Made by a program: the position numbers and the translations under genes
The notes under the pieces: model-generated
Seen by the model: only the letters and a program-made list of their open reading frames with translations
Told to the model about the DNA's origin: nothing
Databases searched by the model: none
Part shown: piece by piece, positions 10,521 through 27,862 of the stretch
Layout: each line of letters starts with the position of its first letter
Position numbering within the stretch: the stretch's first letter is position 1
Assembly (NCBI GenBank): GCA_001914535.1
Contig: MNCR01000071.1
Coordinates: forward strand, 1-34,555
Reading direction: 5' to 3'
DNA: 34,555 bases
Origin: Candidatus Rokubacteria bacterium 13_2_20CM_69_15_1
GTDB taxonomy: Bacteria > Methylomirabilota > Methylomirabilia > Rokubacteriales > CSP1-6

Positions 10521-10543
10521 CCCTCCCTGGGGCAGGAGTGCTC

Positions 10544-11020: not shown

Positions 11021-13551
11021 GCGTGGAATCGGGCGGTTCGAGCGCGGGCTCCGCCCGCGCCACCGACGGCGGGAGGTTCGGAAGGGGGGCAGAGCCCCCC
11101 TCCGAGGGCAAGCACGAGTTCGCGGTCATCGGCCGGCCCCTCCCGAAGATCGACGCCTGGGCGAAGGTGACCGGAGAGACCAGGTACGCCGACGACTTCT
11201 TCCTCCCGCGCATGGCGTACGGCAGGCTCCTGCGCTCTCCGCACGCCCACGCCCGAATCCGCTCCATCGACGCCACGCGGGCGCGCGCGCTGCCGGGCGT
11301 GTACGCGGTGATCACGGGGGCGGACCTGCCGCGCGTGAAGTTCGGCATCCTTCCCGTCTCGCAGGACGAGGAGGCGCTCTGCACCGAGAAGGTCCGCATG
11401 GTGGGCGACGCCGTGGCCGCGGTCGCCGCGGTGGACGAGGAGACGGCCGACCACGCCTGCCGGTTGATCGACGTGGAGTACGAGCCCTTGCGCGCGCTCA
11501 TGTCGATCGAGGAGTCGCTCGCGCATCCCGAGGTGCGCATCCACGAGTACGGCGACGGGCCCAACGTTCACAAGAACGTCGCCCTCCAGTTCGGCGACGT
11601 CGAGGCGGCGTTTGCGCGCGCGGACCTGGTCCGCGAGGACGTGTTCTTCTACGAGGGCAACACGCATCTCCCGATGGAGCAGCACGCGGCGGTGGCGTCC
11701 GCGGGCCCGGACGGCAAGCTCACGCTCTGGTCCTCGACCCAAACGCCGCACTACGTGCACCGGCTCCTCGCGAAAATCTTAGAGATGCCGGCGGCGCATA
11801 TCCGCGTCGTCGCCACGCCTGTGGGCGGCGGCTTCGGCGGCAAGCTCGACCCGTTCGCCCACGAGATCGCGGCGTGCCGCCTCTCGCAGCTCACCGGGCG
11901 CCCGGTGAAGATCGCGTGCACCCGCGAGGAAGTCTTCTACATCCACCGCGGGCGCCATCCGGTGCTCATGTGGATCAAGACCGGCTTCACGAAGCACGGC
12001 GAGATCACCGGCTGCCACCTCCGAACCTGGCTCGACGGCGGCGCGTATGGCTCCTACGGCGTGGCGTCGACCTTCTACACGGGCGTCATCAACCCCGTCA
12101 CGTACAAGATCCCCGTCTACAAGTTCGAGGGCGCGCGCGTCTTCACCAACAAGCCGCCCTGCGGCCCCAAGCGCGGCCACGGCACGCCGCAGCCGCGCTT
12201 CGCGCTCGAGTGCCAGATCGATAAGGCCGCCGAACAGCTCGGCCTCGACCCGGCCGAGATGCGCAAGCGCATCCTCGCCGAGCCCTTCACCAAGACGGCC
12301 AACCACCTCACGGTCACGACGATCGGGCTTGGCGAGTGCATCGACCGCGTGGTCGAGGCCTCGGGCTGGCGCGCTAAGTGGGGTGGCTGGCGATCTCAAT
12401 CGGAGGGGGCCTCGGCGGCCCCGTCCGACAACAGGCGCCGAGGGGTCGGGATCGCCTGCTCGGCCTACCTCACGGGTGCGGGCACCGCCGTCTACTGGAA
12501 CAGCATGCCTCACTCGGGCGTGATCGTGCGCGCCGACCGGAGCGGCGGCGTTGCGGTTCTCTGTGGGGCGACCGACATCGGCCAGGGCTCGGACTCGATC
12601 CTCGCGTACCTGCCGGCGGAGATCCTCGGGATCGACCCGAAGGACGTCCACGTCCACCCCGCCGACACGAGCCTCACGCCCGTGGACCTCGGCTCCTACT
12701 CCTCGCGCGTGACGCTCATGTGCGGCATGGCGGCGATCCAGGCCAGCCAGCGGCTCCGGGAGGTCGTCGCGCGGGCGGTCGCGCGGAAGCTCGAGGTGGA
12801 TCCCGGCGCGCTGGCGTTCCGCGAGCGCAAGGTGGGCGTCCCCGACGACTGGGAGAAGGCGGTGGACTTCGCCCAGGCGGTCGAGCTGGCGGAGGCGATG
12901 CACGGCGTGCTCGCGTTCGCGGGCTCGTACGCGCCGCCGAAGCGGGCGGGGAAGTACAAGGGAGGGGGCGTGGGTCCGTCGCCGTGCTATTCGTATTCGG
13001 CGTGTGTCGTGGAGCTGAGCGTCGACGAAGAAACGGGCGAGATCGAGCTGCACGACGTGTGGATCGGACACGATATTGGCCGCGCGCTGAATCCGCTGCT
13101 CGTCGAGGGGCAGGTCGAAGGCTCGGTGTACATGGGCATCGGCGAGGCCCTCATGGAGGGCCAGGTCTTCCGCAACGGCGTCCACAAGCAGCCGTCGCTC
13201 CTCGAGTACAAGAGCCCGACGACGCTCGAGACGCCGGAGATCCACACCTTCCTCGTCGAGACGGACGACCCGGAGGGGCCGTTCGGCGCGAAGGAGGCTG
13301 GGCAGGGGCCGCTCTTGCCCGTCATCCCTGCGATCGCCAACGCGGTCTACCACGCCGTGGGCGTGCGCTGCGACGAGGTCCCGATCACGCCCGAGATGAT
13401 CCTGAAAGGGCTCGAGCTCCGGCGCCGGGGTAAGGCCGCGCGCGTCGGGCCCGAACGGATCCCGCGCTTCACGTTCAAGGAGCCCGTGGTGGTCGAATCG
13501 GCGTTCGGCCAGCCCGCCGACGCCATCGCCGTGAGACCCTTCGCGCAATGA
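11017..13551 (+). CDS. hcrA: 4-hydroxybenzoyl-CoA reductase, molybdopterin subunit
   Basis: This 844-residue large subunit binds the molybdenum cofactor and carries the active site. Landmarks are GRPLPKIDAWAKVTGETRYA (conserved start, near residue 40), GGGFGGKLDPFAHEIA, RPVKIACTREEVF, GATDIGQGSDSILAYL and, near the C-terminus, GPFGAKEAGQGPLLPVIPAI. In that last motif most family members have the catalytic Glu (as in KxxGE); here it is Gln763. The protein is longer than typical HcrA, partly because two palindromic repeats are read through in frame: residues about 8-30 and 462-471 are low-complexity and repeat-encoded. The ATG at 11017 overlaps the hcrC stop. HcrA is preferred over a CO dehydrogenase because of the 4Fe-4S-bearing partner HcrB and the box genes downstream. 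Confidence 0.85.
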   Translation: MSVESGGSSAGSARATDGGRFGRGAEPPSEGKHEFAVIGRPLPKIDAWAKVTGETRYADDFFLPRMAYGRLLRSPHAHARIRSIDATRARALPGVYAVITGADLPRVKFGILPVSQDEEALCTEKVRMVGDAVAAVAAVDEETADHACRLIDVEYEPLRALMSIEESLAHPEVRIHEYGDGPNVHKNVALQFGDVEAAFARADLVREDVFFYEGNTHLPMEQHAAVASAGPDGKLTLWSSTQTPHYVHRLLAKILEMPAAHIRVVATPVGGGFGGKLDPFAHEIAACRLSQLTGRPVKIACTREEVFYIHRGRHPVLMWIKTGFTKHGEITGCHLRTWLDGGAYGSYGVASTFYTGVINPVTYKIPVYKFEGARVFTNKPPCGPKRGHGTPQPRFALECQIDKAAEQLGLDPAEMRKRILAEPFTKTANHLTVTTIGLGECIDRVVEASGWRAKWGGWRSQSEGASAAPSDNRRRGVGIACSAYLTGAGTAVYWNSMPHSGVIVRADRSGGVAVLCGATDIGQGSDSILAYLPAEILGIDPKDVHVHPADTSLTPVDLGSYSSRVTLMCGMAAIQASQRLREVVARAVARKLEVDPGALAFRERKVGVPDDWEKAVDFAQAVELAEAMHGVLAFAGSYAPPKRAGKYKGGGVGPSPCYSYSACVVELSVDEETGEIELHDVWIGHDIGRALNPLLVEGQVEGSVYMGIGEALMEGQVFRNGVHKQPSLLEYKSPTTLETPEIHTFLVETDDPEGPFGAKEAGQGPLLPVIPAIANAVYHAVGVRCDEVPITPEMILKGLELRRRGKAARVGPERIPRFTFKEPVVVESAFGQPADAIAVRPFAQ
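11038..11105 (-). repeat. Two-hairpin palindromic repeat inside hcrA (copy B, full)
   Basis: Hairpin 2 pairs 11042-11049 with 11053-11060 (GCGCGGGC/GCCCGCGC, TCC loop). Hairpin 1 pairs 11078-11090 with 11094-11105 (G-run against C-run, with a one-base bulge). It is the reverse-complement arrangement of the intergenic copy at 27789-27862: same two stems, same flanking TTCGA, similar spacer length. It is translated in frame as residues about 8-30 of HcrA, just before the conserved start of the domain. Confidence 0.75.
12400..12428 (+). repeat. Half palindromic repeat inside hcrA (copy C)
   Basis: TCGGAGGGGGCC at 12400-12411 pairs with 12417-12428 with one mismatch. The 29 bases match hairpin 1 of the intergenic copy at 27789-27817 at 27 positions. 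The second hairpin is missing. It is read in frame as residues 462-471, in a stretch where HcrA-like proteins need only a short turn. Confidence 0.7.
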
Positions 13552-13627
13552 GCATTGGCCGGACGCAACCACACGCACCTATGGCAGGCCACCCACCAAA
13601 GGTACCGGCCCCGCGGCTCCCGTTAAG

Positions 13628-14644
13628 ATGATCCGGCTTCCCGCGTTCACGTACCTGGCGCCGCGCACCCTTGACGACGCGGCGGCGGCGATGGCCTCCC
13701 ACGGCGCCGAGGCGATGCTCGTGGCGGGAGGCACCGACCTCTATCCCAACATGAAGCGGCGCCAGTTCGAGCCGACCGTGCTGGTCGGCCTCCGAGCGAT
13801 CCGGGACCTCCAGGGCGTTCGCGGTGGCGCGCGCGACGGGATCACGATCGGCGCCGGCACGACGCTTTCCGCCGTCGCCGCGCACCGCGAGATCATCGCG
13901 CACTACCCGGCGCTCGCGACCGCCGCCGGCCTCGTCTCGTCACCGCAGCTCCGCAACATGGGGACGCTCGGCGGCAACGTCTGCGTGGACACGCGCTGCA
14001 ACTACTACAACCAGTCTTACGAGTGGCGGAAAGCGGTCGGGTTCTGCATGAAGAAGGATGGCGCGATTTGTCTCGTCGCCCCCGGGAGCCCGCGCTGCTG
14101 GGCGGTGTCGTCGTCGGACACGGCGCCGGTCCTCTGGAGTCTCGGTGCCCGCGTGCGGCTCTCCTCGACCGCGGGCGAACGCACGATTCCCGTCGAGGCG
14201 CTCTACCGCGACGACGGCATCGAGTACCTGGCCAAGCAGCCCGGCGAGATCCTCACGGACGTCCTGCTGCCGGCCGCCGACGGCTGGCGCTCCGCCTACC
14301 TGAAGCTCCGTCGGCGCGGTTCCTTCGACTTCCCGGTGCTCGGCGTCGCCGTCGCCCTCCGGATGGACGGGCGCGTCGTCGGCGACGCCCGGATCGTCAT
14401 CGGCGCCGTCGCCTCGCAGCCACGCCCGGCGCCCGCCGCGGCCGCGGCGCTCGTCGGTGAGCGGCTGGGACGCGAGCTGATCACGCGCGTCGCCGACCTC
14501 GCCGCGGGGCCGGCGAAGCCCCTCGACAACACAGACTTCACGCACCCCTACCGGAAGAAGATGACGCGCGTCTTCGTCGCGCGCGCGCTCGCATCCCTGG
14601 CGGGGCTCGAGCCGGCCGGCCGGCCGGCCGAGGAGGTCGCGTGA
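13628..14644 (+). CDS. hcrB: 4-hydroxybenzoyl-CoA reductase, FAD and [4Fe-4S] subunit
   Basis: This 338-residue subunit has the FAD-binding fold of the family: AMLVAGGTDLYPNMKRRQ (residues 29-46), TIGAGTTLSAV and RNMGTLGGNVC. It has an inserted loop with C124, C140, C148 and C157. The spacing (16, 8, 9) is, as I recall it, that of the four [4Fe-4S] ligands in Thauera HcrB, a feature absent from ordinary xanthine-oxidase flavin subunits. This is the best evidence that the complex is a 4-hydroxybenzoyl-CoA reductase. C119 is an extra nearby Cys. A 76-nt gap with no recognisable feature separates it from hcrA, and the ATG has no strong ribosome site. The stop overlaps the GTG of the regulator; CCGG-repeated codons lie just upstream (about 14610-14629). 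Confidence 0.9.
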   Translation: MIRLPAFTYLAPRTLDDAAAAMASHGAEAMLVAGGTDLYPNMKRRQFEPTVLVGLRAIRDLQGVRGGARDGITIGAGTTLSAVAAHREIIAHYPALATAAGLVSSPQLRNMGTLGGNVCVDTRCNYYNQSYEWRKAVGFCMKKDGAICLVAPGSPRCWAVSSSDTAPVLWSLGARVRLSSTAGERTIPVEALYRDDGIEYLAKQPGEILTDVLLPAADGWRSAYLKLRRRGSFDFPVLGVAVALRMDGRVVGDARIVIGAVASQPRPAPAAAAALVGERLGRELITRVADLAAGPAKPLDNTDFTHPYRKKMTRVFVARALASLAGLEPAGRPAEEVA

Positions 14645-15189
14645 CCACGCTCGGCGCGCGCATCAAGGGTCTCCGCGCCGAGCGCGAGCTGCAGCAGCGC
14701 CAGCTCGCCGAGAAGGCGGAGCTCACGCCGAGTATGGTGTCGCAGATCGAGTCCGGGCGGCTCACGCCCTCGCTCCACACGCTCGGCCGGGTCGCCGCGG
14801 CGCTCGGTGTGCCGATCGGCGCGCTGTTCGACGCAGAGCCCTCCGGCTCGATCGTGGTGACCCGCAAGAAGGATTACCCGGTCGTCAGCTTCGACGGCTC
14901 GTCGGAGCACTGGGCCGTGCTGGGCGCCGGGCTTTTCCAGGGCAAGATCCGTGCGGTCGTCTCGACCCTCGGGCCCAAGGAGCGCGGGGTCACGACCGAG
15001 AAGGTCGTCATCAAGCCCGGTCAGATGAAACTCGTCTACGTGATCGACGGCAAGGTGGCTCTGCACTACAACGGCGACCGCCACCTGCTCGAGGCCGGCG
15101 ACAGCGCGCTGCTCGACGGCGGCACGCCGCACGGCTGGGAGAATCTCGGCACGAAGCGGGCCCAGGCGCTCTGGGTCATTCTCGGATAG
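14641..15189 (+). CDS. XRE-family HTH regulator with C-terminal cupin
   Basis: This 182-residue protein has an N-terminal Cro/C1 helix-turn-helix (residues about 5-60; LAEKAELTPSMVSQIESGRL is the recognition region) and a C-terminal cupin (about 105-180; IKPGQMKLVYVIDGKVALHY, then LDGGTPHGWEN). The cupin probably senses a small molecule or CoA ester. The GTG start has AGGAGG 4 nt upstream and overlaps the hcrB stop. Box clusters are usually controlled by BoxR, an XRE fused to a shikimate-kinase-like domain; this protein has a cupin instead. Its place in the operon suggests autoregulation through the palindromes at 10483-10520 (inference). Confidence 0.9.
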   Translation: MTTLGARIKGLRAERELQQRQLAEKAELTPSMVSQIESGRLTPSLHTLGRVAAALGVPIGALFDAEPSGSIVVTRKKDYPVVSFDGSSEHWAVLGAGLFQGKIRAVVSTLGPKERGVTTEKVVIKPGQMKLVYVIDGKVALHYNGDRHLLEAGDSALLDGGTPHGWENLGTKRAQALWVILG

Positions 15190-15213
15190 CCCGGTCGCCC
15201 GGGGGGACAGGAT

Positions 15214-16883
15214 ATGGCTGACAGCGCAACCGTTCGCGTCGACTTCCGGACCGACCCGTCGAGGTACAGGCACTGGAAGCTCGCCTTCGACGGGCCCGTC
15301 GCCACGCTCGCGATGGACGTGCAGGAGGACGGCGGGCTCCGGCCGGGCTACGAGCTCAAGCTCAACTCGTACGACCTGGGCGTGGACATCGAGCTCTACG
15401 ACGCGGTCCAGCGGCTTCGGTTCGAGCACCCCGAGGTCGGCGCGGTCGTGATCACCTCGGGCAAGGAGCGCGTCTTCTGCGCCGGCGCCAACATCCGGAT
15501 GCTCTCCCAGGCGGCGCACGGCTGGAAGGTGAACTTTTGCAAGTTCACCAACGAGACCCGCAACGCGATCGAGGAGGCGACGGCCGAGTCGCGCCAGACT
15601 TACCTCACGGCCGTCAACGGCTCGTGTGCGGGCGGCGGCTACGAGCTGGCGCTCGCGACCGAGTGGATCATCATGGCCGACGACGGCAACACCGCCGTCT
15701 CGCTGCCCGAGGTGCCGCTCCTCGCGGTTCTTCCCGGGACCGGCGGGCTCACGCGGCTCGTGGACAAGCGCCACGTACGCCGCGACCGCGCCGACTTCTT
15801 CTGCACCACCGAGGAAGGCGTCAAGGGCCAGCGCGCCGTCGAGTGGGGGCTGGTGGACGAAGTCGTGCCACGCTCGCGCCTCGCCGAGGTCGTCGCCCAG
15901 CGCGCGCGGGAGTTCGCGGCGCGCACCGGCCGGCCGGCGGGCGCGCGCGGGCTCCGGCTCACGCCGCTCGAGCGGACCATCGCGGGCGACGCGATCCGCT
16001 ACAGCCACGTTGCGTGCGCGATCGACCGGGCGCGCGGGATCGCCGAGATCACGCTGACCGCGCCCGCCGCGCCGCCCCCGGCCGACGCGCGGTCCGTTCA
16101 CGCGCAGGGGAGCGCCTTCTGGCCGTTGGTCCTCGCGCGCGAGCTCGATGACCTCGTCCTCCACCTCCGCACCAACGAGGACGAGGTCGGCCTCTGGGTG
16201 TTCAGGACCGCGGGGCAGTCCAACCTGGTCGAAGCCTACGACCGGCTCCTCGCCGGCCACCGGGACGACTGGCTCGTGCGGGAGATCCGTCTCTACTGGA
16301 AGCGCACGCTCAAGCGCCTCGACGTCACCTCGCGCTCGATGTTCGCGCTGATCGAGCCGGGCTCGTGCTTCGCCGGCTCGCTCCTCGAGCTCGCGCTCGC
16401 CGCGGATCGCGCGTACATGCTGGACGGAGCGCGGCCGGGGGAGCGCCGGCCGCCGGCGACCGTACGCCTGACCGAGATGAACTTCGGTGGCTATCCGATG
16501 CCGAACGGCCTGACGCGCCTCGCGAGCCGGTTCCTCCACGACCCGGGCCGGGTCGAGAAGCTTCGGACGCGCGTCGGCGAAGACCTGGACGCCGCGGCGG
16601 CCGCCGAGGCGGGCCTCGTGACCTTCACGCCCGACGACATCGACTGGGAGGACGAGGTGCGGCAGGCACTCGAGGCGCGCGCGGCCTTCTCGGCCGACGC
16701 GCTCACCGGCATGGAAGCCTCGCTCCGGTTCGGCGGTCCGGAAACGCTCGAGACTAAGATCTTCGGCCGGTTGGCGGCGTGGCAGAACTGGATCTTCCAG
16801 CGTCCAAACGCGGTCGGCCCGAAGGGCGCGCTCGTCGTGTACGGCACCGGCCAGCGAAGCGAGTTCGACCGGAGGAGAGCGTG

Positions 16884-16884
<1 letters not shown>
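15214..16884 (+). CDS. boxC: 2,3-epoxybenzoyl-CoA dihydrolase (benzoyl-CoA-dihydrodiol lyase) BoxC
   Basis: BoxC hydrolyses the ring of 2,3-epoxybenzoyl-CoA, releasing formate and a C6 semialdehyde-CoA. The 556-residue protein has the enlarged crotonase fold expected: LRPGYELKLNSYDLGVDIEL, the oxyanion region KERVFCAGANIRMLSQAAHG (residues about 86-105), YLTAVNGSCAGGGYELALAT, SLPEVPLLAVLPGTGGLTRL and, in the second half, LIEPGSCFAGSLLELALAAD. Length matches known BoxC (about 555). The ATG at 15214 follows a GGGGGGA ribosome site. The stop overlaps the boxB ATG, so the two are coupled. Confidence 0.95.
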
Positions 16885-18302
<1,418 letters not shown>

Positions 18303-18322
18303 GCGGGCCGAGGGAGGCTCTC

Positions 18323-18772
18323 ATGCCGAGGGTGATCACGCCGCGAGAGTTCGGAAAGCCGCTCGGGATGTACTCGCACGGGATGGCGGCCCCGGCCGGT
18401 GAGCTCGTCGTCGTCGCCGGCCAGGTCGGCGCCCGGCGGGCGAGCGAGCTGGCCGGCCCGGACGTCGAGTCGCAGACGAAGCAGGCCTTCGCGAACGTCC
18501 GCAGCGTCGTGGAGGCCGCCGGCTGCTCGATGAAGGACGTCATCCGCCTCCAGACCTTCCTCATCAGCGCGGACGACATCGAGGGCTTCATGAAGGCACG
18601 GCACGAGGTGTTCTCCACGTACTTTCCGGACGGGACGTACCCCCCGAACACGCTGCTGGTCGTCGGCCGGCTCGTTCGCCCCGAGCTCAGGGTCGAGATC
18701 GAGGCGATGGCCGTGCGTCCGCGCGCCGCCACGCGGCGCAAGCCGGCCCCCGGGCGAAAGGTGCGGCGCTAG
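18323..18772 (+). CDS. RidA/YjgF-family protein
   Basis: This 149-residue protein belongs to the RidA (enamine/imine deaminase) superfamily: LVVVAGQVGA, QTKQAFANVRSVVEAAGCSM, DVIRLQTFLISADDIEGFM, and the C-terminal NTLLVVGRLVRPELRVEIEA, which includes the usual active-site Arg region. A basic tail (residues about 132-149) follows. AGGGAGG lies 5 nt before the ATG. Relatives appear in several aromatic-degradation clusters, where they act on reactive enamine or enol intermediates. Which compound it handles here is unknown. Confidence 0.88.
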   Translation: MPRVITPREFGKPLGMYSHGMAAPAGELVVVAGQVGARRASELAGPDVESQTKQAFANVRSVVEAAGCSMKDVIRLQTFLISADDIEGFMKARHEVFSTYFPDGTYPPNTLLVVGRLVRPELRVEIEAMAVRPRAATRRKPAPGRKVRR

Positions 18773-18796
18773 CCTGAGCCACCGGGGGAGCCAGAC

Positions 18797-20347
18797 ATGA
18801 ACGCGTCGGACTTCTTGCCCGCGCAGTTCAACGCCGCCGCCTGGTTCGTCGACAAGAACGTCGCGGAGGGTCGGGGCGCCAAGCCGGCGTTCCTCTACGA
18901 GGACCGAACGCTCACGTACGCCGACGCGCACGAGCTCGTCAACCGCACCGGCAACGCGCTCCGCGAGCTCGGTGTCGAGATGGAGCACCGGGTCCTCATG
19001 CTCTGTCTCGACGCGCCGGAGTTCATCGGGACGTTCTGGGGCGCCATCAAGATCGGCGCCGTCCCGGTCCCGGTGAACACGCTGATGCGCACCACCGACT
19101 ACCGCTATTTCCTCGAGGACAGCCGCGCCCGGGTCGCCGTCGTCTCCGCGCCGCTGCTCGCCGAGGCGGCGCCGGCGCTGGTCGAGGCGAAGCACCTCAA
19201 ACACGTGCTGATCGCCGGCGGGAGCCACGGGCCATTCATGTCCTACGAGGACCGGATCGCCCGGGCGTCCGCGACGCTCGAGGCGGCGCCCACGTCGCGG
19301 GACGACGCCGCCTTCTGGCAGTACTCGTCCGGGTCCACCGGGTTCCCGAAGGGCGCGGTCCACCTGCACCACGACATGGCGGTCTGCTGCGAGACCTACG
19401 GCAAGCAGGTCCTCGGGATCCAGCCGACCGATCGGGTCTTCTCGGCGGCGAAGCTCTTCTTCGCGTACGGGCTCGGCAACGCCTGCTTCTTCCCGATGAG
19501 CGTGGGCGCGCAGAGCGTGCTCTACCCGCACCGGCCGACGCCGGAGTCCGTCTTCGAGATCATCGCCCGCTACCGCCCGACGCTCTTCTTCGGCGTGCCG
19601 ACGCTCTACGCCGGCATGCTCGCGGTCAAAGAAGCCGAAGCGCGGTTCGACACCGCGTCGTTGCGGCTCTGCGTGTCGGCGGGCGAGGCGTTGCCCGACG
19701 CGATCTACACGCGCTGGCGTGAGCGGTTCCGCGTCGAGATTATCGACGGCATCGGCACGACGGAGATCGGCCACATCTTCATCTCGAACCGTCCCGGCCT
19801 GGCGCGCCCCGGCTCCTCGGGGCTCCCGGTGCCGGGCTACGAGCTTGCCATCGTGGACGACGAGGGGCGCTCGGTCCCATCGGGCGAGATCGGCAACCTC
19901 CGCGTCAAGGGCGACTCCACGATGGCGTACTACTGGAACAAGCACGAGAAGACCAAGGCGACGCTCTTCGGCGCGTGGATCCAGACGGGCGACAAGTACT
20001 ACGCGGACGAGGACGGCTACTTCTGGTACTGCGGCCGCTCGGACGACATGCTCAAGGTCGGGGGGATCTGGGTCTCGCCGGTCGAGGTCGAGGCGACGCT
20101 CGTGCGCCATCCGGCCGTGCTCGAAGCGGCGGTGGTCGGCCAGGAGGACACCGACCGGCTCGTCAAGCCGAAGGCGGTCATCGTCCTCAAGGAGCCCTGG
20201 AAGGCGTCCGAGGAGCTCGCCAACGAGCTCAAGACCTTCGTGAAGGACAAGATCGCGCCCTACAAGTACCCACGCTGGATCGAGTTCGCCGGCGAGCTGC
20301 CGAAGACCGCGACGGGCAAGATCCAGCGCTTCAAGCTGCGCCGCTGA
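18797..20347 (+). CDS. Benzoate-CoA ligase family protein (BadA/BclA-like)
   Basis: This 516-residue AMP-forming ligase activates an aromatic acid to its CoA ester. It opens FLPAQFNAAAWFVDKNV, typical of benzoate-CoA ligases, and has the P-loop YSSGSTGFPKGAVHLHHDM, the adenylate motif IDGIGTTEIGHIFISN, YYWNKHEKTKAT, and the A10 lysine in LPKTATGKIQRFKLR. GGGGGAG precedes the ATG. It could act on benzoate, 4-hydroxybenzoate or both; the HcrCAB genes make a 4-hydroxybenzoate-tolerant enzyme attractive, but that is not visible in sequence. Confidence 0.92.
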   Translation: MNASDFLPAQFNAAAWFVDKNVAEGRGAKPAFLYEDRTLTYADAHELVNRTGNALRELGVEMEHRVLMLCLDAPEFIGTFWGAIKIGAVPVPVNTLMRTTDYRYFLEDSRARVAVVSAPLLAEAAPALVEAKHLKHVLIAGGSHGPFMSYEDRIARASATLEAAPTSRDDAAFWQYSSGSTGFPKGAVHLHHDMAVCCETYGKQVLGIQPTDRVFSAAKLFFAYGLGNACFFPMSVGAQSVLYPHRPTPESVFEIIARYRPTLFFGVPTLYAGMLAVKEAEARFDTASLRLCVSAGEALPDAIYTRWRERFRVEIIDGIGTTEIGHIFISNRPGLARPGSSGLPVPGYELAIVDDEGRSVPSGEIGNLRVKGDSTMAYYWNKHEKTKATLFGAWIQTGDKYYADEDGYFWYCGRSDDMLKVGGIWVSPVEVEATLVRHPAVLEAAVVGQEDTDRLVKPKAVIVLKEPWKASEELANELKTFVKDKIAPYKYPRWIEFAGELPKTATGKIQRFKLRR

Positions 20348-20364
20348 AGCGCGGAGCCGCGACC

Positions 20365-21642: not shown

Positions 21643-21737
21643 GCATCGAGGCGGGCTTCGTTCGGGCGCCTCCAACGGCCGAATCCGGAATTTCCGGCCG
21701 GCCGCAGGAAGACGACTCGATCTCTCGCTCGATCGGC

Positions 21738-21743
21738 TATCAT
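21738..21743 (+). promoter_or_regulatory. Candidate -10 box for the cyclase gene
   Basis: TATCAT lies in the 172-nt stretch after the PaaK-type ligase, 5 nt before an in-frame GTG at 21749 and 71 nt before the ATG at 21815. If it is used, either a leaderless GTG start or a longer leader results. No convincing -35 is present. Confidence 0.3.
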
Positions 21744-21814
21744 TTCAAGTGACGGGCAGGGGTCGGCCCGGCTGGTTGCCGTCGCCGGGGGCGTCCCTTG
21801 TAGGGTCACGCGAG

Positions 21815-23899
21815 ATGGAACCAGATCGCAAGGAAGCCAAGAAGACGCACGCTCCCGAGATTGCCTCAGGGGTGTCGTTCGGCTCGACCGTCACCCTCCT
21901 CTTCAGCGACATTCGCGGCTTCACGGACTACACCGACCAGTACGGTGACGCGGCCGCGTACCAGGTCCTCCAGGAGCACAACGCCATCGTCCGCAAGCAG
22001 ATCGAGGCGTTCGGCGGCCAGGTCGTCAAGACCCAGGGCGACAGCTTCATGGTCGCCTTCACGACCGCGCGCGGCGCGATCCTGTGCGCGGTCGCGATCC
22101 AGCACGCCCTGGGCGCGGCGAACCGGAACCAGTCGGGGACCCGCATCGCCATCGGCATTGGCATCAACACCGGCGAGCCGATCCAGGAAGGCGGCGACTT
22201 CTTCGGCGGCATGGTGAACCTGGCCGCCCGGATCTGCGCGGCGGCGGGCCCGGGCGAGATCTTCATCGCGGAGACCACGCGGTACGTCGCGGGCCGGATC
22301 GAGTCGGTCGAATTCGTCGATCGGGGGCTCCACGAGCTCAAGGGCTTCCAGGAGCCTCAGCGGGTGATCGAGGTGCGATGGCAGTCGTCCGGGGCCGAGC
22401 CCTCCGGCGCGAAGGAGGCCGAGATCGCGGCCGTGATGCAGAATGCGATCGACGTGCTGAACCGCGTGCTCGGTGTCGCGCACGCGGACGATCCGGTGTT
22501 CCGGCCGCTCGTCGAGTGCCAGGCCAAGGCCAGCGACCTGCGGCTGACCCTCTCCCGCTCCGCGTCCGATCGCCAGAGCCAGAGCGTGCAGCGGATCCAG
22601 GAGGCGATCCGCCCGTTCGAGGACTTCGTCACGCTCCTCGTCGAGCGGGACACCCTCGAGGAGCAGCGCTCGGCGCAGATCGAGACCCGCGTCGCCCGCT
22701 CGTTCGGCTGGCCGCTGGTGACCGCCGCGGCGCGTGGGCGGCTGTCCTTCGCCGGCGCGCCAGCGCCCACACCAGCGCCCGCGCCTGCGGCCCCACCGCC
22801 GCCAGCGCCGAGGCCAGCGCCCAGGCCGGCGCCGGCGCCCGCGGCCACACCGACGTCAGCACCCGCGCCGCCGCCAGTGCCCGCGGCGCCGCCAGCGCCG
22901 ACGAGGGCGCCCGCGCCGAAGGCGGCGGAGGTTCCCACCGGGTTTGCCGCTCCCCGCACGTCGGCGGTCGAGGCGCCCGCGGTGAGAATCGACCCGCGCG
23001 GCGCGGGCGTGCGCTGGTGGGCCCCCGCGTGCGAAGCCTGGAGCGAGTGGAAGTCGTCGGGCATCGCGTGGGCCTACGCCCTGCGCCTCGTCGTCGCCGA
23101 GTACCCCCACCTGCTCGCCGTGCCCATCCGAGAGAGTGCCGCGCACGCAGAGCGGCTGGCCGCCGGCTACTTTCTCCTCCTCGAGCACGTCGAGAACCGG
23201 TCGCCGGGGTTCGTGCAGGCCGCTGTCGCGCGCGCGCTCGGCCAGGGCCGGGGCGCCGGCGAACCGGAGGTGCTCGGGCGAGAGCTCTACGAGCTGCTCG
23301 TCACCGATGGCCGGCTGCGCGAGACCTATGCGGCGTTCGTGAGCGACGTCATGGGCACCGCCATCCCCAACCCGGGTCTCTGGGCCGACGTTGGTATCGT
23401 CGAGCAGGAGAACGCGACCGAGGTCATCACACACCGGGGCCGCGTCGTCGGTGAGACCCAGGAGCAGACCGAGCGCGTGACCGCGCAGACAGAGCGCACG
23501 ACCGATCACCGATTCGCGGTGGCATTGGCGCCGCTCACCGCGCGGTTTTTCTACATCAAGCCGGGTGATCTGAAGACACCGCGTGACGTCGACATCAAGG
23601 TGACGAAGGACGGCCAGCCGTCGGACCACGCCTGGCACGTGACGCTGAAGACGAGCCTCGTCGTCCGCTCGGAGCCGAAGCGCCTCGGACCCAAGGGCGT
23701 TGTCGTCAAGGGGCTGGGCCGAGAGTTCGCCGGCGTCTGGATCGGGGTCTTCAACGCCGATCCGGCGAACCCGGCGAGCTACGAGGTCGTGATGGCCGTG
23801 CGGCCGCCCGGACCGACAGGACCGACAGGGCCGCCGGGACCGATAGGACCGACGCCGCGCAAAGCGTCGCCGTTCGCGCCGCCCGGGCGCCGGCACTAG
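21815..23899 (+). CDS. Class III adenylate cyclase with proline-rich linker and collagen-like tail
   Basis: The protein has 694 residues. The N-terminal cyclase homology domain (about 22-195) has metal-binding D32 (FSDIRGFTDYT) and D76 (KTQGDSFMV), the adenine-selecting pair K72 and D128, and transition-state N135 and R139 (MVNLAARI), so activity with ATP is predicted. A region rich in Gln/Arg/Glu follows, then a Pro-Ala linker (about 310-385) and an unrecognised domain of about 300 residues (starting VRWWAPACEAWSEWK; includes TEVITHRGRVVGETQEQTE). The tail carries GPTGPTGPPGPIGPTP, collagen-like Gly-X-Y triplets. No membrane segment is seen. The start is uncertain: the ATG at 21815 has a weak ribosome site, and a GTG at 21749 would add 22 residues. 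The unknown half may be the sensor or target-binding part. Confidence 0.85.
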   Translation: MEPDRKEAKKTHAPEIASGVSFGSTVTLLFSDIRGFTDYTDQYGDAAAYQVLQEHNAIVRKQIEAFGGQVVKTQGDSFMVAFTTARGAILCAVAIQHALGAANRNQSGTRIAIGIGINTGEPIQEGGDFFGGMVNLAARICAAAGPGEIFIAETTRYVAGRIESVEFVDRGLHELKGFQEPQRVIEVRWQSSGAEPSGAKEAEIAAVMQNAIDVLNRVLGVAHADDPVFRPLVECQAKASDLRLTLSRSASDRQSQSVQRIQEAIRPFEDFVTLLVERDTLEEQRSAQIETRVARSFGWPLVTAAARGRLSFAGAPAPTPAPAPAAPPPPAPRPAPRPAPAPAATPTSAPAPPPVPAAPPAPTRAPAPKAAEVPTGFAAPRTSAVEAPAVRIDPRGAGVRWWAPACEAWSEWKSSGIAWAYALRLVVAEYPHLLAVPIRESAAHAERLAAGYFLLLEHVENRSPGFVQAAVARALGQGRGAGEPEVLGRELYELLVTDGRLRETYAAFVSDVMGTAIPNPGLWADVGIVEQENATEVITHRGRVVGETQEQTERVTAQTERTTDHRFAVALAPLTARFFYIKPGDLKTPRDVDIKVTKDGQPSDHAWHVTLKTSLVVRSEPKRLGPKGVVVKGLGREFAGVWIGVFNADPANPASYEVVMAVRPPGPTGPTGPPGPIGPTPRKASPFAPPGRRH

Positions 23900-24010
23900 C
23901 GGGTCCGCGCACGACGGGGATTTGGCGGAGCGTCGCGACGTGATTTCTCGGCCGTAGGACGTTCCGCTCCGACGACCGCCGCACGCCGTGAGATCGTCGA
24001 GCTCCCCACC

Positions 24011-24628
24011 ATGACCCACGAACCGACCCGCGAACCCTTCGACACGCTCGCGTCGGCGGCCCCCCCGGACCGGCCGCGCCGTGAGCGGGGACGCGGTTCC
24101 ATCCCATGGATCGTCGGCGCGGCTGCGGTGGCCGGCGTCGCCGCCGCGTTCTCGGGCGCCTTCGTCGCCGGACACTACGAGGCGCGGCTCGGGCAGATGG
24201 CCCGCGAGCTCGTGGCGACGCGCCAGCGCCTGCAGCGCGAGGTCGCCGCGTTGAACGACCAGCTCGCCCTCTACCGGAGCGCTGCGGACCTGCTGCGTGA
24301 CCCGGCGACCCGGGTCGTGACCCTCCGGGGTCTGGGCCCGAGCCCCGGAGCGTTGGGGCGGGTGATCTGGCACCGGTCTGCGGGCGGCCAGCTGTTCGTC
24401 GCGAAGCTGCCGCCGCCGCCGCCGGGCAAGGCGTATGAGTTGTGGACGATCGGCCAGGGTCCGCCGCGGCCCGCGGGCGTCTTCCGGGTGGACGCCGAAG
24501 GGCGGGCGACTCAGCGCGTGGAGCCGGTGGCGGGCGGCGAGCGCGTGAAGGGCTTCACCGTCACGCTCGAGCCGGAGCGTGGCGTGCCGGCGCCGACCGG
24601 GCCGATGGTCCTCGCGTCGGCCCGGTAG
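24011..24628 (+). CDS. RskA-like membrane protein (anti-sigma-K C-terminal domain)
   Basis: This 205-residue protein has a short charged N-terminus, one membrane helix (residues about 31-53, IPWIVGAAAVAGVAAAFSGA), a coiled coil (RQRLQREVAALNDQLALY), then a periplasmic domain with GQLFVAKLPPPPPGKAYELW, PAGVFRVDAEG and KGFTVTLEPERGVPAPTGPM. These are the marks of the anti-sigma-K factor RskA C-terminus. The cytosolic zinc-finger anti-sigma domain normally present is missing, and no sigma factor gene lies nearby, so it may not be a true anti-sigma factor. The ATG lacks a strong ribosome site; the 111-nt stretch upstream shows nothing recognisable. Confidence 0.8.
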   Translation: MTHEPTREPFDTLASAAPPDRPRRERGRGSIPWIVGAAAVAGVAAAFSGAFVAGHYEARLGQMARELVATRQRLQREVAALNDQLALYRSAADLLRDPATRVVTLRGLGPSPGALGRVIWHRSAGGQLFVAKLPPPPPGKAYELWTIGQGPPRPAGVFRVDAEGRATQRVEPVAGGERVKGFTVTLEPERGVPAPTGPMVLASAR

Positions 24629-24644
24629 CCGCGGTGCCTTGGAG

Positions 24645-24650
24645 TATACT
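24645..24650 (+). promoter_or_regulatory. Candidate -10 box for the DinB-like gene
   Basis: TATACT, one mismatch from consensus, lies 39 nt before the ATG at 24690 with AAGGAGT in between at 24676-24682. The -35 region is GC-rich and unconvincing. Confidence 0.35.
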
Positions 24651-24689
24651 GCGAGCGAAGTCGATCACTCACGCCGAAGGAGTCCCTCG

Positions 24690-25235
24690 ATGAGTCTTCC
24701 GAAGCCCGTGGAGACGTTGTGGAATGAGCTCCAGGCCGTGCGCGTCGACGTCCTCAGAGAAGCGGAGGGGCTCACGCAGCGCCAGGCGGACTGGAAGCCG
24801 AGCGCGACGGACTGGTCGGTCGGCGAGATCGTCGACCACTTGACGATCGCCGAGATCGCGACGGGCAAGCTCACCACCAAGCTCACGAAAGAGGCCGCGG
24901 CGGCGGGGACGCTCGCGCAGTGGCCGGCCGACCTCACGGCGTTCGCCACGCTTCCGCCCGATCCGCCGGGGCCGGCGGAGGCGCCGGAGGTGGTGCGGCC
25001 GTCGCACGGCAAGACGATCGGCGAGCTGATCGCGACCATGAGGGCCACCCGCGAGCGGAGCCGGCAGTCCATCGAGAAGCTCGCGACGCTCGATCCGCGC
25101 AAGCTCCGCTTCAAGCACTTCCGGCTCGGCGATCTCGACCTCGCCCAGTGGTGGCAGCTCCAGATCCGGCACGACCGGATCCATCTCGCCCAGGTTCGCG
25201 ACGTCCGGCGCGCGCCGGGGTTCCCCAAGGCCTGA
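24690..25235 (+). CDS. DinB-like (DinB_2) metal-binding protein
   Basis: This 181-residue all-helical protein belongs to the DinB/YfiT family: WNELQAVRVDVLREAEGLTQ, then DWSVGEIVDHLTIAE with His50, and a late RHDRIHLAQV providing two more His. The three His form the usual nickel or zinc site. Some relatives are thiol transferases or stress proteins, but no function can be assigned. AAGGAGT precedes the ATG. A 33-nt gap leads to ttuB. Confidence 0.85.
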   Translation: MSLPKPVETLWNELQAVRVDVLREAEGLTQRQADWKPSATDWSVGEIVDHLTIAEIATGKLTTKLTKEAAAAGTLAQWPADLTAFATLPPDPPGPAEAPEVVRPSHGKTIGELIATMRATRERSRQSIEKLATLDPRKLRFKHFRLGDLDLAQWWQLQIRHDRIHLAQVRDVRRAPGFPKA

Positions 25236-25268
25236 GGGGAGGGCGCGGCTCGGCGCGTGACGAGTCCC

Positions 25269-25469
25269 ATGAAGGTCATCTTGCGGAACCCCCGGCGCGA
25301 GATCGAGGTGGCGGGCGGGCGCCGCGTGAAGGACGTGCTGCGCGAGCTTCATATCCTGCCCGAGACCGTCCTCGTGATCCGTGGTGACGAGCTGATCACG
25401 GCCGACCAGGTGGTGCGCGACGGCGACACGATCGAGCTGCGACCGGTCATGTCGGGAGGGGCGCGATGA
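25269..25469 (+). CDS. ttuB: Ubiquitin-like sulfur carrier TtuB (ThiS/MoaD family)
   Basis: This 66-residue beta-grasp protein (MKVILRNPRREIEV, then LPETVLVIRGDELITAD and DGDTIELRPVMSGG) carries sulfur as a C-terminal thiocarboxylate for tRNA 2-thiolation. The chain ends SGGAR rather than the bare GG that must be adenylated, so two residues may need removal. I chose the ATG at 25269 because the beta strand begins there; a GTG at 25257 would add four residues. The stop overlaps the ttuA ATG, a tight coupling that supports the role. Confidence 0.82.
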   Translation: MKVILRNPRREIEVAGGRRVKDVLRELHILPETVLVIRGDELITADQVVRDGDTIELRPVMSGGAR

Positions 25470-26368
25470 AGTGCCGGAAGTGCGGTGGGACGGCGGTGCT
25501 CGAGCTGCGCCGCCACAATGCCGCGTTCTGCGCCCCGGACTTCCTCGACTTCTTCCGGAACCAGGTCCGTGAGGCGGTCCGGAAGTACCGCATGCTCGAC
25601 AAGGATGAGCACGTGCTCGTGGCCGTGTCCGGCGGCAAGGACTCGCTCGCGCTCTGGGACGTCCTGCTCGACGAGGGCTACCGGACGACGGGACTCTACC
25701 TCGACCTCGGCATCTTCGACTACTCGGTGGAGTCCAGGCGGAAGTGCGAGGCGTTCGCCGCGGGCCGCGGCGTTCCGCTGATCGTGGCCTCCGTGGCCGA
25801 GGAGGTCGGGGGGCCCGTCCCCGTCATCAAGGAGGTCACGCGACGGCCCCCGTGCTCGGGCTGCGGCCTCTCCAAGCGGTATCTCATGAATCGCGTCGCG
25901 CTCGACCGCGGCATCGGCGTCGTCGCGACCGGCCACAACCTCGACGACGAGGCGGCGACGCTGTTCGGCTCGATCGCCCACTGGCAGACCGACGCGCTCG
26001 CGCGCCAGTCGCCCGCGCTGCCGTCCACGCACGCCAAGCTGGTTCGGCGCGTAAAGCCGCTCTACCGCCTCTCCGAGCTCGAGACGTCCGCGTACGCCTT
26101 CTTGAGAAGGATCGACTACATCGTGGAGGAGTGCCCGTTCGCCAAGGGCGCCACCTCGATCGCGCACAAGGAGATCCTGAACCGGATGGAGGACGCCTCG
26201 CCGGGCGCGAAGCACAATTTCTTGTTCGGCTTCCTGGAAAAAGCCCGCGCGGCGTTCGAGCGCACCGAGGCGGTCGAGCTCCGCGAGTGCGCACGCTGCG
26301 GTCAGGTCACCACCGGGACGATCTGCGCCTTCTGCAAGCTCGCGGACCAGGTCAAGCGGACGCTGTAG
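25466..26368 (+). CDS. ttuA: tRNA-5-methyluridine54 2-sulfurtransferase TtuA
   Basis: This 300-residue protein is an N-type PP-loop enzyme that thiolates tRNA, probably U54, taking sulfur from TtuB. It has an N-terminal zinc finger (CRKC, then H/C at 17-22), the PP-loop SGGKDS at 55-60, iron-sulfur Cys C130, C133 (PPCSGCGLSKRYLMN) and C223 (EECPFA), and a C-terminal zinc finger with C275, C278, C287 and C290. These positions match the Thermus enzyme as I recall it. In known organisms this modification raises tRNA heat stability; its presence hints at, but does not prove, a thermotolerant ancestry. Confidence 0.92.
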   Translation: MKCRKCGGTAVLELRRHNAAFCAPDFLDFFRNQVREAVRKYRMLDKDEHVLVAVSGGKDSLALWDVLLDEGYRTTGLYLDLGIFDYSVESRRKCEAFAAGRGVPLIVASVAEEVGGPVPVIKEVTRRPPCSGCGLSKRYLMNRVALDRGIGVVATGHNLDDEAATLFGSIAHWQTDALARQSPALPSTHAKLVRRVKPLYRLSELETSAYAFLRRIDYIVEECPFAKGATSIAHKEILNRMEDASPGAKHNFLFGFLEKARAAFERTEAVELRECARCGQVTTGTICAFCKLADQVKRTL

Positions 26369-26423
26369 CGGGCGGAGCCAGGCCGGCTCATTCCGAGGGT
26401 GGCCGGAGCGAGGGACCCGCCGG

Positions 26424-26569
26424 CTCCGGACGCCCGCTCCGAGCGTATCTCGAGCTCGCGGCCGCGATGGCGATCGTCGGCAGCTCGGTCGTCGTTGGCA
26501 AGCTGGTCGTCGTTAGGCGGGGCGTGCGTGATCGGCGGCATCGCTTTGCTCGCGTGGGAGCGGGCTTGA
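26424..26569 (+). pseudogene. Remnants of an EamA/DMT-family transporter
   Basis: In the 268 nt between ttuA and the thiolase start, one frame reads RAYLELAAAMAIVGSSVVVG followed by KLVVV (ATG at 26467), which looks like the first membrane helix of an EamA transporter. A different frame then reads GACVIGGIALLAWERA and stops at 26567-26569, which looks like the last helix and tail. About 250 middle residues are missing, so I infer a gene collapsed by deletion plus frameshift. Just upstream, 26403-26409 and 26423-26429 (CCGGAGC/GCTCCGG) form a 7-bp stem, without a T run. Confidence 0.42.
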
Positions 26570-26590
26570 GCGGCCGCGGGGGTCCTCATG

Positions 26591-26596
26591 TAGAAT
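26591..26596 (+). promoter_or_regulatory. Candidate -10 box for the thiolase gene
   Basis: TAGAAT, identical to the box before the adenosyltransferase gene, ends 40 nt before the ATG at 26637. No -35 is evident. The in-frame ATG at 26595 overlaps this box and is therefore not favoured as start. Confidence 0.35.
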
Positions 26597-26636
26597 GAAT
26601 CACGGTTCAGTCAACGTCACGACCCGGGGGGCCGCC

Positions 26637-27782
26637 ATGCGAGACGCTGTCATTGTTGGAGCCGTGCGAACCGCCGTCGGAAGGAAGAACGGCAAGCTTT
26701 CACCCGTCCGCCCCGACGATCTCGCCGCGCACGTGCTCCGGGAGCTCGTCCGCCGCGTCGGCGTCGACGCCTCCGAGGTCGAGGACGTCATCCTCGGGTG
26801 CGTGGACCAGCTCGGCGAGCAGGGGTTCAACATCGCGCGCAACGCCGCGCTGATCGCGGGCTTCCCGGTGGACGTGTGCGGTACGACGCTCGACCGCATG
26901 TGCGGCTCGGGGCAGCAGGCGGCCAACTTCGCCGCGATGGGCGTGATGGCGGGCCAGTACGATGTGGTCATCGCGGGCGGCGTCGAGCACATGACCCGCG
27001 TTCCGATGGGCTCGAACGCCGTGGGCCCCGGCGAAGGGCCGCTCTCACCGCAGCTCCAGGAGCGCTACAACATCGTGCCTCAGGGGATCTCCGCGGAGCT
27101 GATCGCCGAGACGTGGGGGCTCAAGCGTGAAGCGCTCGACGAGTTCGCGGCGCAGAGCCACGAGAAAGCCGGGCGCGCGATCGCCGAGGGGCGGTTCAAG
27201 CGGGAGATCGTGCCGGTAACGCTCCCCGACGGCTCCGTCTTCGACACCGACGAAGGCGTCCGCGTGCCCGTGAACCGCGAGAAGATGGCGGCCCTGACGC
27301 CCTCCTTCAAGCCCGACGGCGTGGTGACGGCCGCCAACGCGTCGCAGATCTCCGACGGCGCCGCGGCGCTGATGCTCATGTCATCCGAGCGCGCGAACGC
27401 GCTCGGTATCCGGCCCCGCGCGCGCGTGGTCGCGACGGCCCTGGCAGGCGTGGACCCGACGATGATGCTGACGGGCCCGATCCCGGCGACCCAGCGTGTG
27501 CTGAAGAAGGCCGCGCTCGGGCTGGACGACGTCGACCTCTACGAGATCAACGAGGCGTTCGCCTCGGTCGTGCTCGCGTGGGAGCGGGAGCTCCACCCGG
27601 ACATGAGCCGCGTGAACGTCAACGGCGGTGCGATCGCGCTCGGCCACCCGCTCGGCTGTTCGGGCGCCAAGCTCATGACGACGCTGCTCCACGAGCTCGA
27701 GCGCACGAGTACGCGCTACGGGCTCCAGACGATGTGCATCGGCTTCGGCCAGGGGATCGCCACCGTCATCGAGCGGCTCTAA
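26637..27782 (+). CDS. Acetyl-CoA acyltransferase (thiolase)
   Basis: This 381-residue catalytic thiolase has nucleophile C89 in LDRMCGSGQQAANFAAMGV, the NEAF motif in LYEINEAFASVVLAW, GGAIALGHPLGCSGAKLM with the active His, and C-terminal Cys in TMCIGFGQG. It cleaves 3-oxoacyl-CoA or runs in reverse. In this setting it could cleave 3-oxoadipyl-CoA, the end of the Box route, but it sits apart from the operon and no chain-length marker is visible. The ATG at 26637 is chosen because conserved sequence (RDAVIVGAVRTAVGR) begins there; an ATG at 26595 would add 14 residues unlike the family. Confidence 0.93.
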   Translation: MRDAVIVGAVRTAVGRKNGKLSPVRPDDLAAHVLRELVRRVGVDASEVEDVILGCVDQLGEQGFNIARNAALIAGFPVDVCGTTLDRMCGSGQQAANFAAMGVMAGQYDVVIAGGVEHMTRVPMGSNAVGPGEGPLSPQLQERYNIVPQGISAELIAETWGLKREALDEFAAQSHEKAGRAIAEGRFKREIVPVTLPDGSVFDTDEGVRVPVNREKMAALTPSFKPDGVVTAANASQISDGAAALMLMSSERANALGIRPRARVVATALAGVDPTMMLTGPIPATQRVLKKAALGLDDVDLYEINEAFASVVLAWERELHPDMSRVNVNGGAIALGHPLGCSGAKLMTTLLHELERTSTRYGLQTMCIGFGQGIATVIERL

Positions 27783-27788
27783 GTACAT

Positions 27789-27862
27789 TCGGAGGGGGCC
27801 TCGACGGCCCCCTCCGAGGCCTCCCCCAGGACGGGATTGCGCGGGCGAAGCCCGCGCTCGAA
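27789..27862 (+). repeat. Two-hairpin palindromic repeat (copy A, intergenic)
   Basis: Hairpin 1 is a perfect 12-bp stem, TCGGAGGGGGCC (27789-27800) with GGCCCCCTCCGA (27806-27817), loop of 5. After a 21-nt spacer, hairpin 2 is a perfect 8-bp stem, GCGCGGGC (27839-27846) with GCCCGCGC (27850-27857), GAA loop, then TCGAA. It begins 6 nt after the thiolase stop and may also end transcription, though no T run follows. Copies B and C lie inside hcrA. Confidence 0.8.

What the first reader, a model, noticed from the sequence alone, without database searches (positions are those of the whole stretch)
11038..27862. Mobile palindromic repeat family inserted in frame in hcrA
The same two-hairpin element is found after the thiolase gene (27789-27862, stems 12 and 8 bp, perfect), inverted inside the 5' end of hcrA (11038-11105), and as a single hairpin in the middle of hcrA (12400-12428, 27 of 29 bases matching). 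Both hcrA copies keep the reading frame and add low-complexity residues. Protein-embedded palindromes of this kind are known in Rickettsia but uncommon; REP-type elements normally avoid genes.
Basis: partly seen in the sequence, partly recalled or inferred. Interest (0 to 1): 0.7.

Follow-up and report, generated by a model that had tools for sequence, protein, structure and literature searches.

The report
Rokubacterial mobile hairpin element inside hcrA
A short two-hairpin DNA element that has spread through the genomes of Rokubacteria, usually landing beside the ends of genes, has here also landed inside an enzyme gene without breaking its reading frame, and copies elsewhere carry duplicated target DNA that shows they moved by insertion.

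Summary
27789-27862 is a two-hairpin element (stems 12 and 8 bp), 11037-11105 an inverted full copy in frame near the 5' end of hcrA, 12400-12428 its first hairpin alone in mid-hcrA. It is one family: 57 model matches in this genome, hairpin 2 in 39 of 39 genomes of the order searched (up to 284 matches) and one lone hit among 21 other genomes of the class. Copies move: flanking direct repeats score 9 or more in 17 of 198 against 1.35 expected, from 8 nt up to 42/42, 38/38 and 47/56, and the longest cover gene ends. hcrA orthologues show empty, sense, inverted and decayed versions at the same sites. By an approximate gene call only 5 of 237 copies lie inside genes (a lower bound); most lie beside gene ends, typically 4-5 nt after a stop. 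RAYT, reverse transcriptase and IS481 genes do not track copy number; the mobiliser is unknown. Closest known: Yersinia YPAL/RU-2 (variable duplications, 3-26 bp), Rickettsia RPE (in frame), REPs (after stops). It is a new variant of a known kind; the hcrA copies are probably tolerated passengers.

The parts
27783..27788 (+). 6 nt between the thiolase TAA stop (27780-27782) and hairpin 1
   Evidence: read; the commonest distance from stop to hairpin 1 in the family is 4-5 nt
27789..27817 (+). hairpin 1, 12-bp perfect stem, 5-nt loop
27818..27838 (+). linker (CCTCCCCCAGGA type)
   Evidence: consensus of alignment A1
27839..27862 (+). hairpin 2, 8-bp perfect stem, 3-nt loop, plus TCGAA
   Evidence: pairing kept at the variable stem position in 265 of 271 copies
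27863..27883 (+). degenerate tail (family form CGGCGGTTACTCCGACGCG), followed by TCTAGG, which resembles TCTAAG at the left junction (possible decayed target duplication, 5 of 6)
   Evidence: by eye; weak
11037..11105 (-). full inverted copy, in frame near the 5' end of hcrA
   Evidence: orthologues in G033 and G024 have it, G001-G003 lack the full element
12400..12428 (+). hairpin 1 alone, in frame in mid-hcrA (about residues 461-471)
11017..13551 (+). host gene: hcrA-like molybdopterin subunit of 4-hydroxybenzoyl-CoA reductase type
   Evidence: TIGR03194 808.6 bits, below cut-off; PDB 1rm6_A E 4.2e-175
26595..27782 (+). thiolase gene upstream of the intergenic copy
   Evidence: TIGR01930 462.3 bits, over its cut-off

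Best explanation
This is a non-autonomous, MITE/REP-like mobile element of about 75-100 bp belonging to the Rokubacteria. It inserts as one unit (hairpin 1, C-rich linker, hairpin 2, short tail) at staggered breaks and so duplicates target DNA of variable length, from about 8 nt (often with TAG or CTAG) to about 56 nt. Its neighbourhood (gene ends, meeting points of two genes, TAG or TAA stops) comes from target choice plus survival: an insertion survives where it misses the reading frames or where the duplication rebuilds the gene end. Most 69-76-nt copies are open in all six frames, so an insertion of a multiple of 3 into a dispensable loop or N-terminal tail can be read through; that is the case at both hcrA sites. 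Once in place it decays by loss of hairpins. Shown here: the family, its spread, direct repeats, variable occupancy of orthologous sites, stem covariation, open frame. Inferred: the breakage mechanism, the enzyme, and that the hcrA inserts are neutral.
For: Hairpin 2 in 39 of 39 genomes of the order searched, against 1 lone hit in 21 other genomes of the class. Flanking direct repeats: score 9 or more in 17 of 198 copies against mean 1.35, max 5 in 100 shuffled pairings; 7 or more in 41 against mean 9.29, max 20. Long ones: L088 42/42, L192 38/38, L206 24/24, L128 43/50, L137 47/56. Of the 10 copies scoring 11 or more I translated 8: in 6 the repeat holds a stop, in L192 an inferred start, in L150 the first codons of a gene. 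Sites occupied in one genome and not in another: L193/L157, L198/L177, L144/L207. hcrA mid site: full sense in G001, full inverted in G024 and G015, hairpin 1 in G000 and G002, remnants in G006, G007, G016. The two-hairpin unit is kept: 211 of 221 hairpin-1 hits have hairpin 2 beside them. Hairpin 2 variable pair: C-G 134, G-C 131, other 6, of 271. All six frames open in 126 of 142 copies. The mid site falls in the stretch where the homologous nicotinate dehydrogenase is split into two chains (3hrd_A ends at query 446, 3hrd_B begins at 497).
Against: A direct repeat scoring 8 or more was found in only 24 of 198 copies (3.47 expected, max 12 in a shuffle). None of the three window copies has a convincing one: the thiolase copy has 5 of 6, and at the hcrA sites I could define none. 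No autonomous relative or mobilising enzyme was found. Duplications of 8 to 56 nt do not suit an ordinary DDE transposase, so one mechanism may not explain all, and a fixed-register test on 62 copies with the common tail gave no excess. At the hcrA N-terminal site G001, G003 and G013 may hold remnants, so gain and loss are not resolved. Gene context rests on a codon-usage heuristic trained on window genes; it did not call the window's own N-terminal hcrA copy as inside a gene, so 5 of 237 is a lower bound.
Confidence: 0.78

Rival explanations
1. The hairpins are kept by selection as 3'-end RNA elements (terminator, mRNA stabiliser or ribosome-stalling hairpin), and their position after stops is their function rather than a result of insertion.
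For: A stop codon in the inferred coding frame lies within 40 nt in 103 of 148 copies against 459 of 2960 random positions; the distance peaks at 4-5 nt (62 of 107). Stem covariation. REPs fewer than 16 nt after a stop lower translation in E. coli (passages in PMC12306157). Single-sided gene ends favour the sense orientation 108 to 61 (my sum over the classes).
Against: G019 shows no sense bias (16 against 24, same sum). No T-run follows either hairpin in the window copy. Copies occur inside genes, at gene starts and in both orientations at one hcrA site. Direct repeats and empty sites show insertion. Use after insertion remains possible.
Confidence: 0.3
2. It is an ordinary REP moved by a RAYT (Y1) transposase.
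For: Size, palindromes, copy number, intergenic position after stops. One copy-rich genome, G033, has a split Y1 match.
Against: PF01797 is found in 7 of 39 genomes of the order, none in G000-G003 nor in the copy-rich G015, G017, G019 and G025. GTAG in 7 and CGTC in 13 of 198 just 5' of hairpin 1. No hairpin 2 in any of the 30 Y1 loci fetched. RAYT/IS200-type movement is not known to give target duplications (recalled).
Confidence: 0.05
3. A MITE of a CTAG-targeting DDE element such as IS481: fixed short duplication, with the long repeats being secondary.
For: CTAG within 12 nt left of hairpin 1 in 51 of 159 copies against 4 of 2940 background 20-mers. TAG or CTAG in 9 of the 24 repeats scoring 8 or more. 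IS481-type matches at E up to 0.001 in 52 of 60 genomes, G000 and G019 included. IS481 targets NCTAGN (recalled, not checked in a call).
Against: IS481 passes its curated cut-off in 7 of 60 genomes, not in G000 or G019, and weaker matches are also common outside the order. No hairpin 2 in the 12 IS481 loci fetched; one bare hairpin-1 arm match in L358. Much of the CTAG excess follows from TAG stops. The fixed-register test gave 63 against 60.65. Repeats of 24-56 nt do not fit.
Confidence: 0.25
4. Both hcrA inserts are old and simply inherited; what looks like renewed insertion at the mid site is recombination at the symmetrical hairpin 1.
For: The N-terminal insert is shared by G000, G033 and G024. 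Hairpin 1 is palindromic and sits at the same place in the sense and the inverted versions.
Against: Mid-site versions differ in hairpin-1 subtype as well as orientation. Same-genus G003 shows no mid insert.
Confidence: 0.35

Closest known systems
YPAL / RU-2 of Yersinia
   Same: Palindromic, internal inverted repeats, not A+T-rich, intergenic; target duplications of variable length (3-26 bp), filled and empty sites, in-frame fusions (PMC2229807, section 11 read)
   Different: 168 bp; here about 75-100 bp with two separate hairpins, repeats up to 56 nt, and position at gene ends. Sequences were not compared.
Rickettsia palindromic elements (RPE)
   Same: Palindromic, inserted in frame in metabolic genes (passages in PMC10969869; PMC2229807)
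   Different: RPEs are often in genes (11 of 12 homologues in one report cited in PMC10969869) and encode a peptide; here 5 of 237 copies are called inside genes. Target duplication of RPE is marked '?' in the table of PMC2229807.
REP elements (GTAG- or CGTC-tagged, RAYT-associated)
   Same: Short palindromes, mostly downstream of genes, some inside genes (abstract of PMC3733652); some close to stops (passages in PMC12306157)
   Different: No consistent tag, no tracking RAYT, two unlike hairpins in fixed order, target duplications
Bacterial MITEs such as RUP, NEMIS and ERIC
   Same: Small, non-autonomous, target duplication
   Different: Most of those are A+T-rich with terminal inverted repeats and TA ends (passages in PMC2229807); this one is G+C-rich with variable duplications

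Membership tests
REP (RAYT type) | GTAG or CGTC tag beside the palindrome | tested here: not met
   GTAG 7 and CGTC 13 of 198 just 5' of hairpin 1; CGTC 2 of 198 5' of hairpin 2; CGTC 6 of 198 on the other strand 3' of hairpin 2
REP (RAYT type) | RAYT gene in the genome, flanked by the repeats | tested here: not met
   PF01797 in 7 of 39 genomes of the order, 0 in G000-G003; no hairpin 2 in 30 Y1 loci
REP in the wide sense (dispersed intergenic palindrome) | many copies, mostly extragenic | tested here: met
   57 model matches in own genome; 5 of 237 called inside genes, a lower bound
MITE (bacterial, non-autonomous) | target-site duplication | tested here: met
   17 of 198 at score 9 or more against 1.35 expected; met for the family, not for the window copies
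MITE (bacterial, non-autonomous) | terminal inverted repeats shared with an autonomous IS | tested here: inconclusive
   Only TCGGAG / CTCCGA near the two ends by eye; no partner IS found
YPAL/RU-2 | variable-length target duplications | tested here: met
   8 to 56 nt
YPAL/RU-2 | sequence homology to the 168-bp unit | not tested
   no Yersinia copy was fetched
RPE | in-frame insertion in coding genes as a common habit | tested here: not met
   5 of 237 called inside genes; hcrA is an exception
intrinsic terminator | G+C-rich hairpin followed by a T-run | tested here: not met
   sequence after 27817 and after 27862 read directly; window copy only

The most novel reading that the evidence does not exclude
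A Rokubacterial element that inserts with strongly variable target duplications (8 to 56 nt), as SINE-like target-primed insertion would give, although no reverse transcriptase was found in some of its copy-rich genomes (G019, G025): a new way of moving for a bacterial palindrome, with duplications that rebuild the gene end it lands in.
Probability: 0.15. Interest if true: 0.78.

Novelty: new variant of a known kind. Interest (0 to 1): 0.5.

Why it matters
It is a widespread repeat of a bacterial order seen here through metagenome-assembled genomes (all 80 titles shown are MAGs), and it carries the marks of insertion clearly enough to study how REP/MITE-like DNA moves without an evident RAYT. 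hcrA gives a natural series (empty, sense, inverted, decayed) of an element entering and leaving an enzyme gene, which makes the old question of how palindromes enter proteins testable by comparison.

Tried and rejected
RAYT/Y1, reverse transcriptase PF00078 (15 of 39 order genomes, one of them below the cut-off; none in G000-G003, G019 or G025, but present in the copy-rich G015, G017 and G033) and IS481 as mobilisers: none tracks copy number, and no hairpin 2 lies in the loci fetched (30 Y1, 4 RT, 12 IS481 loci; one bare hairpin-1 arm match in L358).

5' truncation as a sign of target-primed reverse transcription: a few candidate copies (L009, L028), not enough. The first hairpin-1-only count was spoiled by reading each palindrome on both strands and was redone.

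A fixed-register test of the flanking match in the 62 copies with the common tail gave no excess overall (63 against 60.65); CTAG on both sides may inflate the control. This is a result against a simple fixed 8-bp duplication. With 3 mismatches allowed the hairpin-2 pattern gave 53 matches in the own genome but the reversed control gave 6; with 1 mismatch 47 and 0.

Viral contigs: 0 exact matches. Rfam: 0 matches in the window at gathering thresholds. Literature: one search (Rokubacteria + palindromic) listed 6 papers and one search (three of Rokubacteria/repeat/transposable element/MITE) listed 8 of 2,237; by title none treats such a Rokubacteria repeat. Of these only PMC10969869 was opened (passages). 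Absence from print is claimed only for these searches.

Full report
OBSERVATION. The three places exist as described, with one base's correction (11037-11105). Hairpin 1 (12 bp) and hairpin 2 (8 bp) are perfect in the thiolase copy. Matches within the window are far above chance (0.00 in 100 shuffles). A covariance model built from 71 copies, the two full window copies among them, finds these two by construction, the mid-hcrA hairpin at 23.3 bits (E 0.0048), and otherwise only opposite-strand readings or rows with E of about 1 and above. The reading frame is open through both hcrA copies.

THE FAMILY. In the window's own genome (2.8 Mb, 76% complete) hairpin 2 matches 47 times at up to one mismatch, with 0 for the reversed control, and the full model 57 times at E up to 0.01, with 150 of 6068 candidates scored. 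Among 60 genomes every one of the 39 of the order has it (1 to 284 matches); of 21 in other families of the class one has a single match, without hairpin 1. I take that one as a probable mis-bin.

ANATOMY. The unit is a few nt, hairpin 1, a CCTCCCCCAGGA-type linker, hairpin 2, TCGAA and a tail. Hairpin 1 has several subtypes, and the tail looks lineage-specific: CGGCGGTTACTCCGACGCG in the window's genus, GGGCATTACTCCGACACG in G019 (by eye). Of 221 hairpin-1 hits with enough flank, 211 have hairpin 2 beside them; the mid-hcrA copy is one of the 10 without, several of which show a degenerate second hairpin by eye. In hairpin 2 the variable pair is C-G in 134, G-C in 131 and otherwise in 6 of 271 copies, although the search pattern allowed mixed pairs at no extra cost.

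WHERE IT SITS. By codon-usage of 237 copies lie inside genes, against 48.7% of 1185 random positions. The heuristic was trained on window genes and asks for the same frame on both sides; it missed the window's own N-terminal hcrA copy, so 5 is a lower bound. A stop codon in the inferred coding frame lies within 40 nt upstream of hairpin 1 in 103 of 148 copies against 459 of 2960 random positions. In the larger set 107 of 198 have one within 14 nt, and 62 of these are 4-5 nt away; their stops are TAG 63, TAA 25, TGA 19, whereas 50-58% of 843 background genes end in TGA. The background loci themselves contain elements.

INSERTION. The left and right flanks of one copy share direct repeats far more than shuffled pairings do: score 9 or more in 17 of 198 against a mean of 1.35 and a maximum of 5 in 100 shuffles (by design the left repeat had to end within 10 nt of hairpin 1 and the right one to start within 45 nt of hairpin 2). 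The repeats range from 8 nt (CCGGTAGC, TCACGAGT, CGGCTAGC) to 12/12, 16/16, 24/24, 38/38 and 42/42, and to 43/50 and 47/56 in older-looking pairs. In 17 of the 24 cases scoring 8 or more the left repeat ends 3-5 nt before hairpin 1; the distance on the right runs from 2 to 42. I translated 8 of the 10 cases scoring 11 or more (L052 and L149 were left out). In L088, L206, L128, L137 and L226 the repeat holds the stop of the right-hand gene, in L205 the stop of the left gene and the start of the right one, in L192 an inferred start, and in L150 the first codons of the right-hand gene. So survival of such insertions plausibly depends on the duplication. Occupied and empty orthologous sites were also seen directly. 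Against a simple picture: in the 62 copies with the common tail a fixed-register test showed no overall excess, and the window's own copies show at best a decayed duplication.

HCRA. One search aligned 32 rows from 30 genomes (the window and, it seems, G024 appear twice); one search read the DNA of 21 loci at the N-terminal site and 22 at the mid site. The N-terminal insert is full in G000, G033 and G024, reduced to hairpin 1 in G015, a short remnant in G013 and possibly in G001 and G003, and not recognisable in G002 and the others. The mid site holds a full sense copy in G001, full inverted copies in G024 and G015, hairpin 1 in G000 and (long form) G002, a degenerate form in G006, remnants in G016 and G007, and nothing recognisable by eye in G003 and the rest. 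At the mid site the length differences reported are multiples of 3; at the N-terminal site most but not all are, since the comparison runs past the start codon. Of 142 copies of 69-76 nt, 126 are open in all six frames, so length is the main limit on reading through. The mid site lies in a variable stretch; in nicotinate dehydrogenase the homologous chain is physically split there (3hrd_A to query 446, 3hrd_B from 497). I therefore read the hcrA inserts as tolerated passengers. That they are neutral is inference.

MECHANISM AND AGENT. The best account is a non-autonomous element inserted at staggered breaks. The enzyme is unknown. Y1 transposases (7 of 39 order genomes), reverse transcriptases (15 of 39) and IS481 (over cut-off in 7 of 60, matches at E up to 0.001 in 52 of 60) do not track copy number; G033 has a split Y1 match, and G015, G017 and G033 have reverse transcriptase matches, while G019 and G025 have neither Y1 nor reverse transcriptase. 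No hairpin 2 lies in the fetched loci of these genes. Incomplete genomes, the small number of loci and extinct partners limit these negatives.

KNOWN RELATIVES. Variable duplications of 3-26 bp are reported for Yersinia YPAL/RU-2 (PMC2229807, section 11 read; passages). In-frame palindromes are known from Rickettsia (PMC10969869, passages). REPs close to stops and inside genes are known (PMC12306157, passages; PMC3733652, abstract; PMC2817692, passages). The Rokubacteria family shares traits with each but fails the tag and RAYT tests of REPs and the genic habit of RPEs. I call it a new variant of a known kind.

Noticed in passing
window 10538-20347: Cluster for aromatic acid breakdown: hcrC-, hcrA- and hcrB-like genes, BoxC (TIGR03222, 924.2 bits, over cut-off) and a benzoate-CoA ligase family protein (TIGR02262, over cut-off).
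   Followed up: partly
L287, L288, L306, L313, L324 (G019): A longer related element with an extra block (GGTTCGAGCCGAGGGG... or GGTTCGAGCGTGGCGGG...) before hairpin 2; in L314 and L317 a short element sits inside such a block.
   Followed up: partly
L038, L054, L217: Extra hairpin-2 units or arms repeated in tandem at the 3' side of the element.
   Followed up: no
L141 versus L194: Orthologous copies that differ by presence of hairpin 1, showing loss or gain of one module at a site.
   Followed up: no
L124 (QHVJ01000554.1): Contig titled Acidobacteria carries a full element and matches a Rokubacteria locus; probable mis-binned contig.
   Followed up: partly
window 21749-23899: Predicted adenylate-cyclase-like ORF (label by eye, no search) with long Ala-Pro repeats and a collagen-like GPTGPTGPPGPIGP end.
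   Followed up: no
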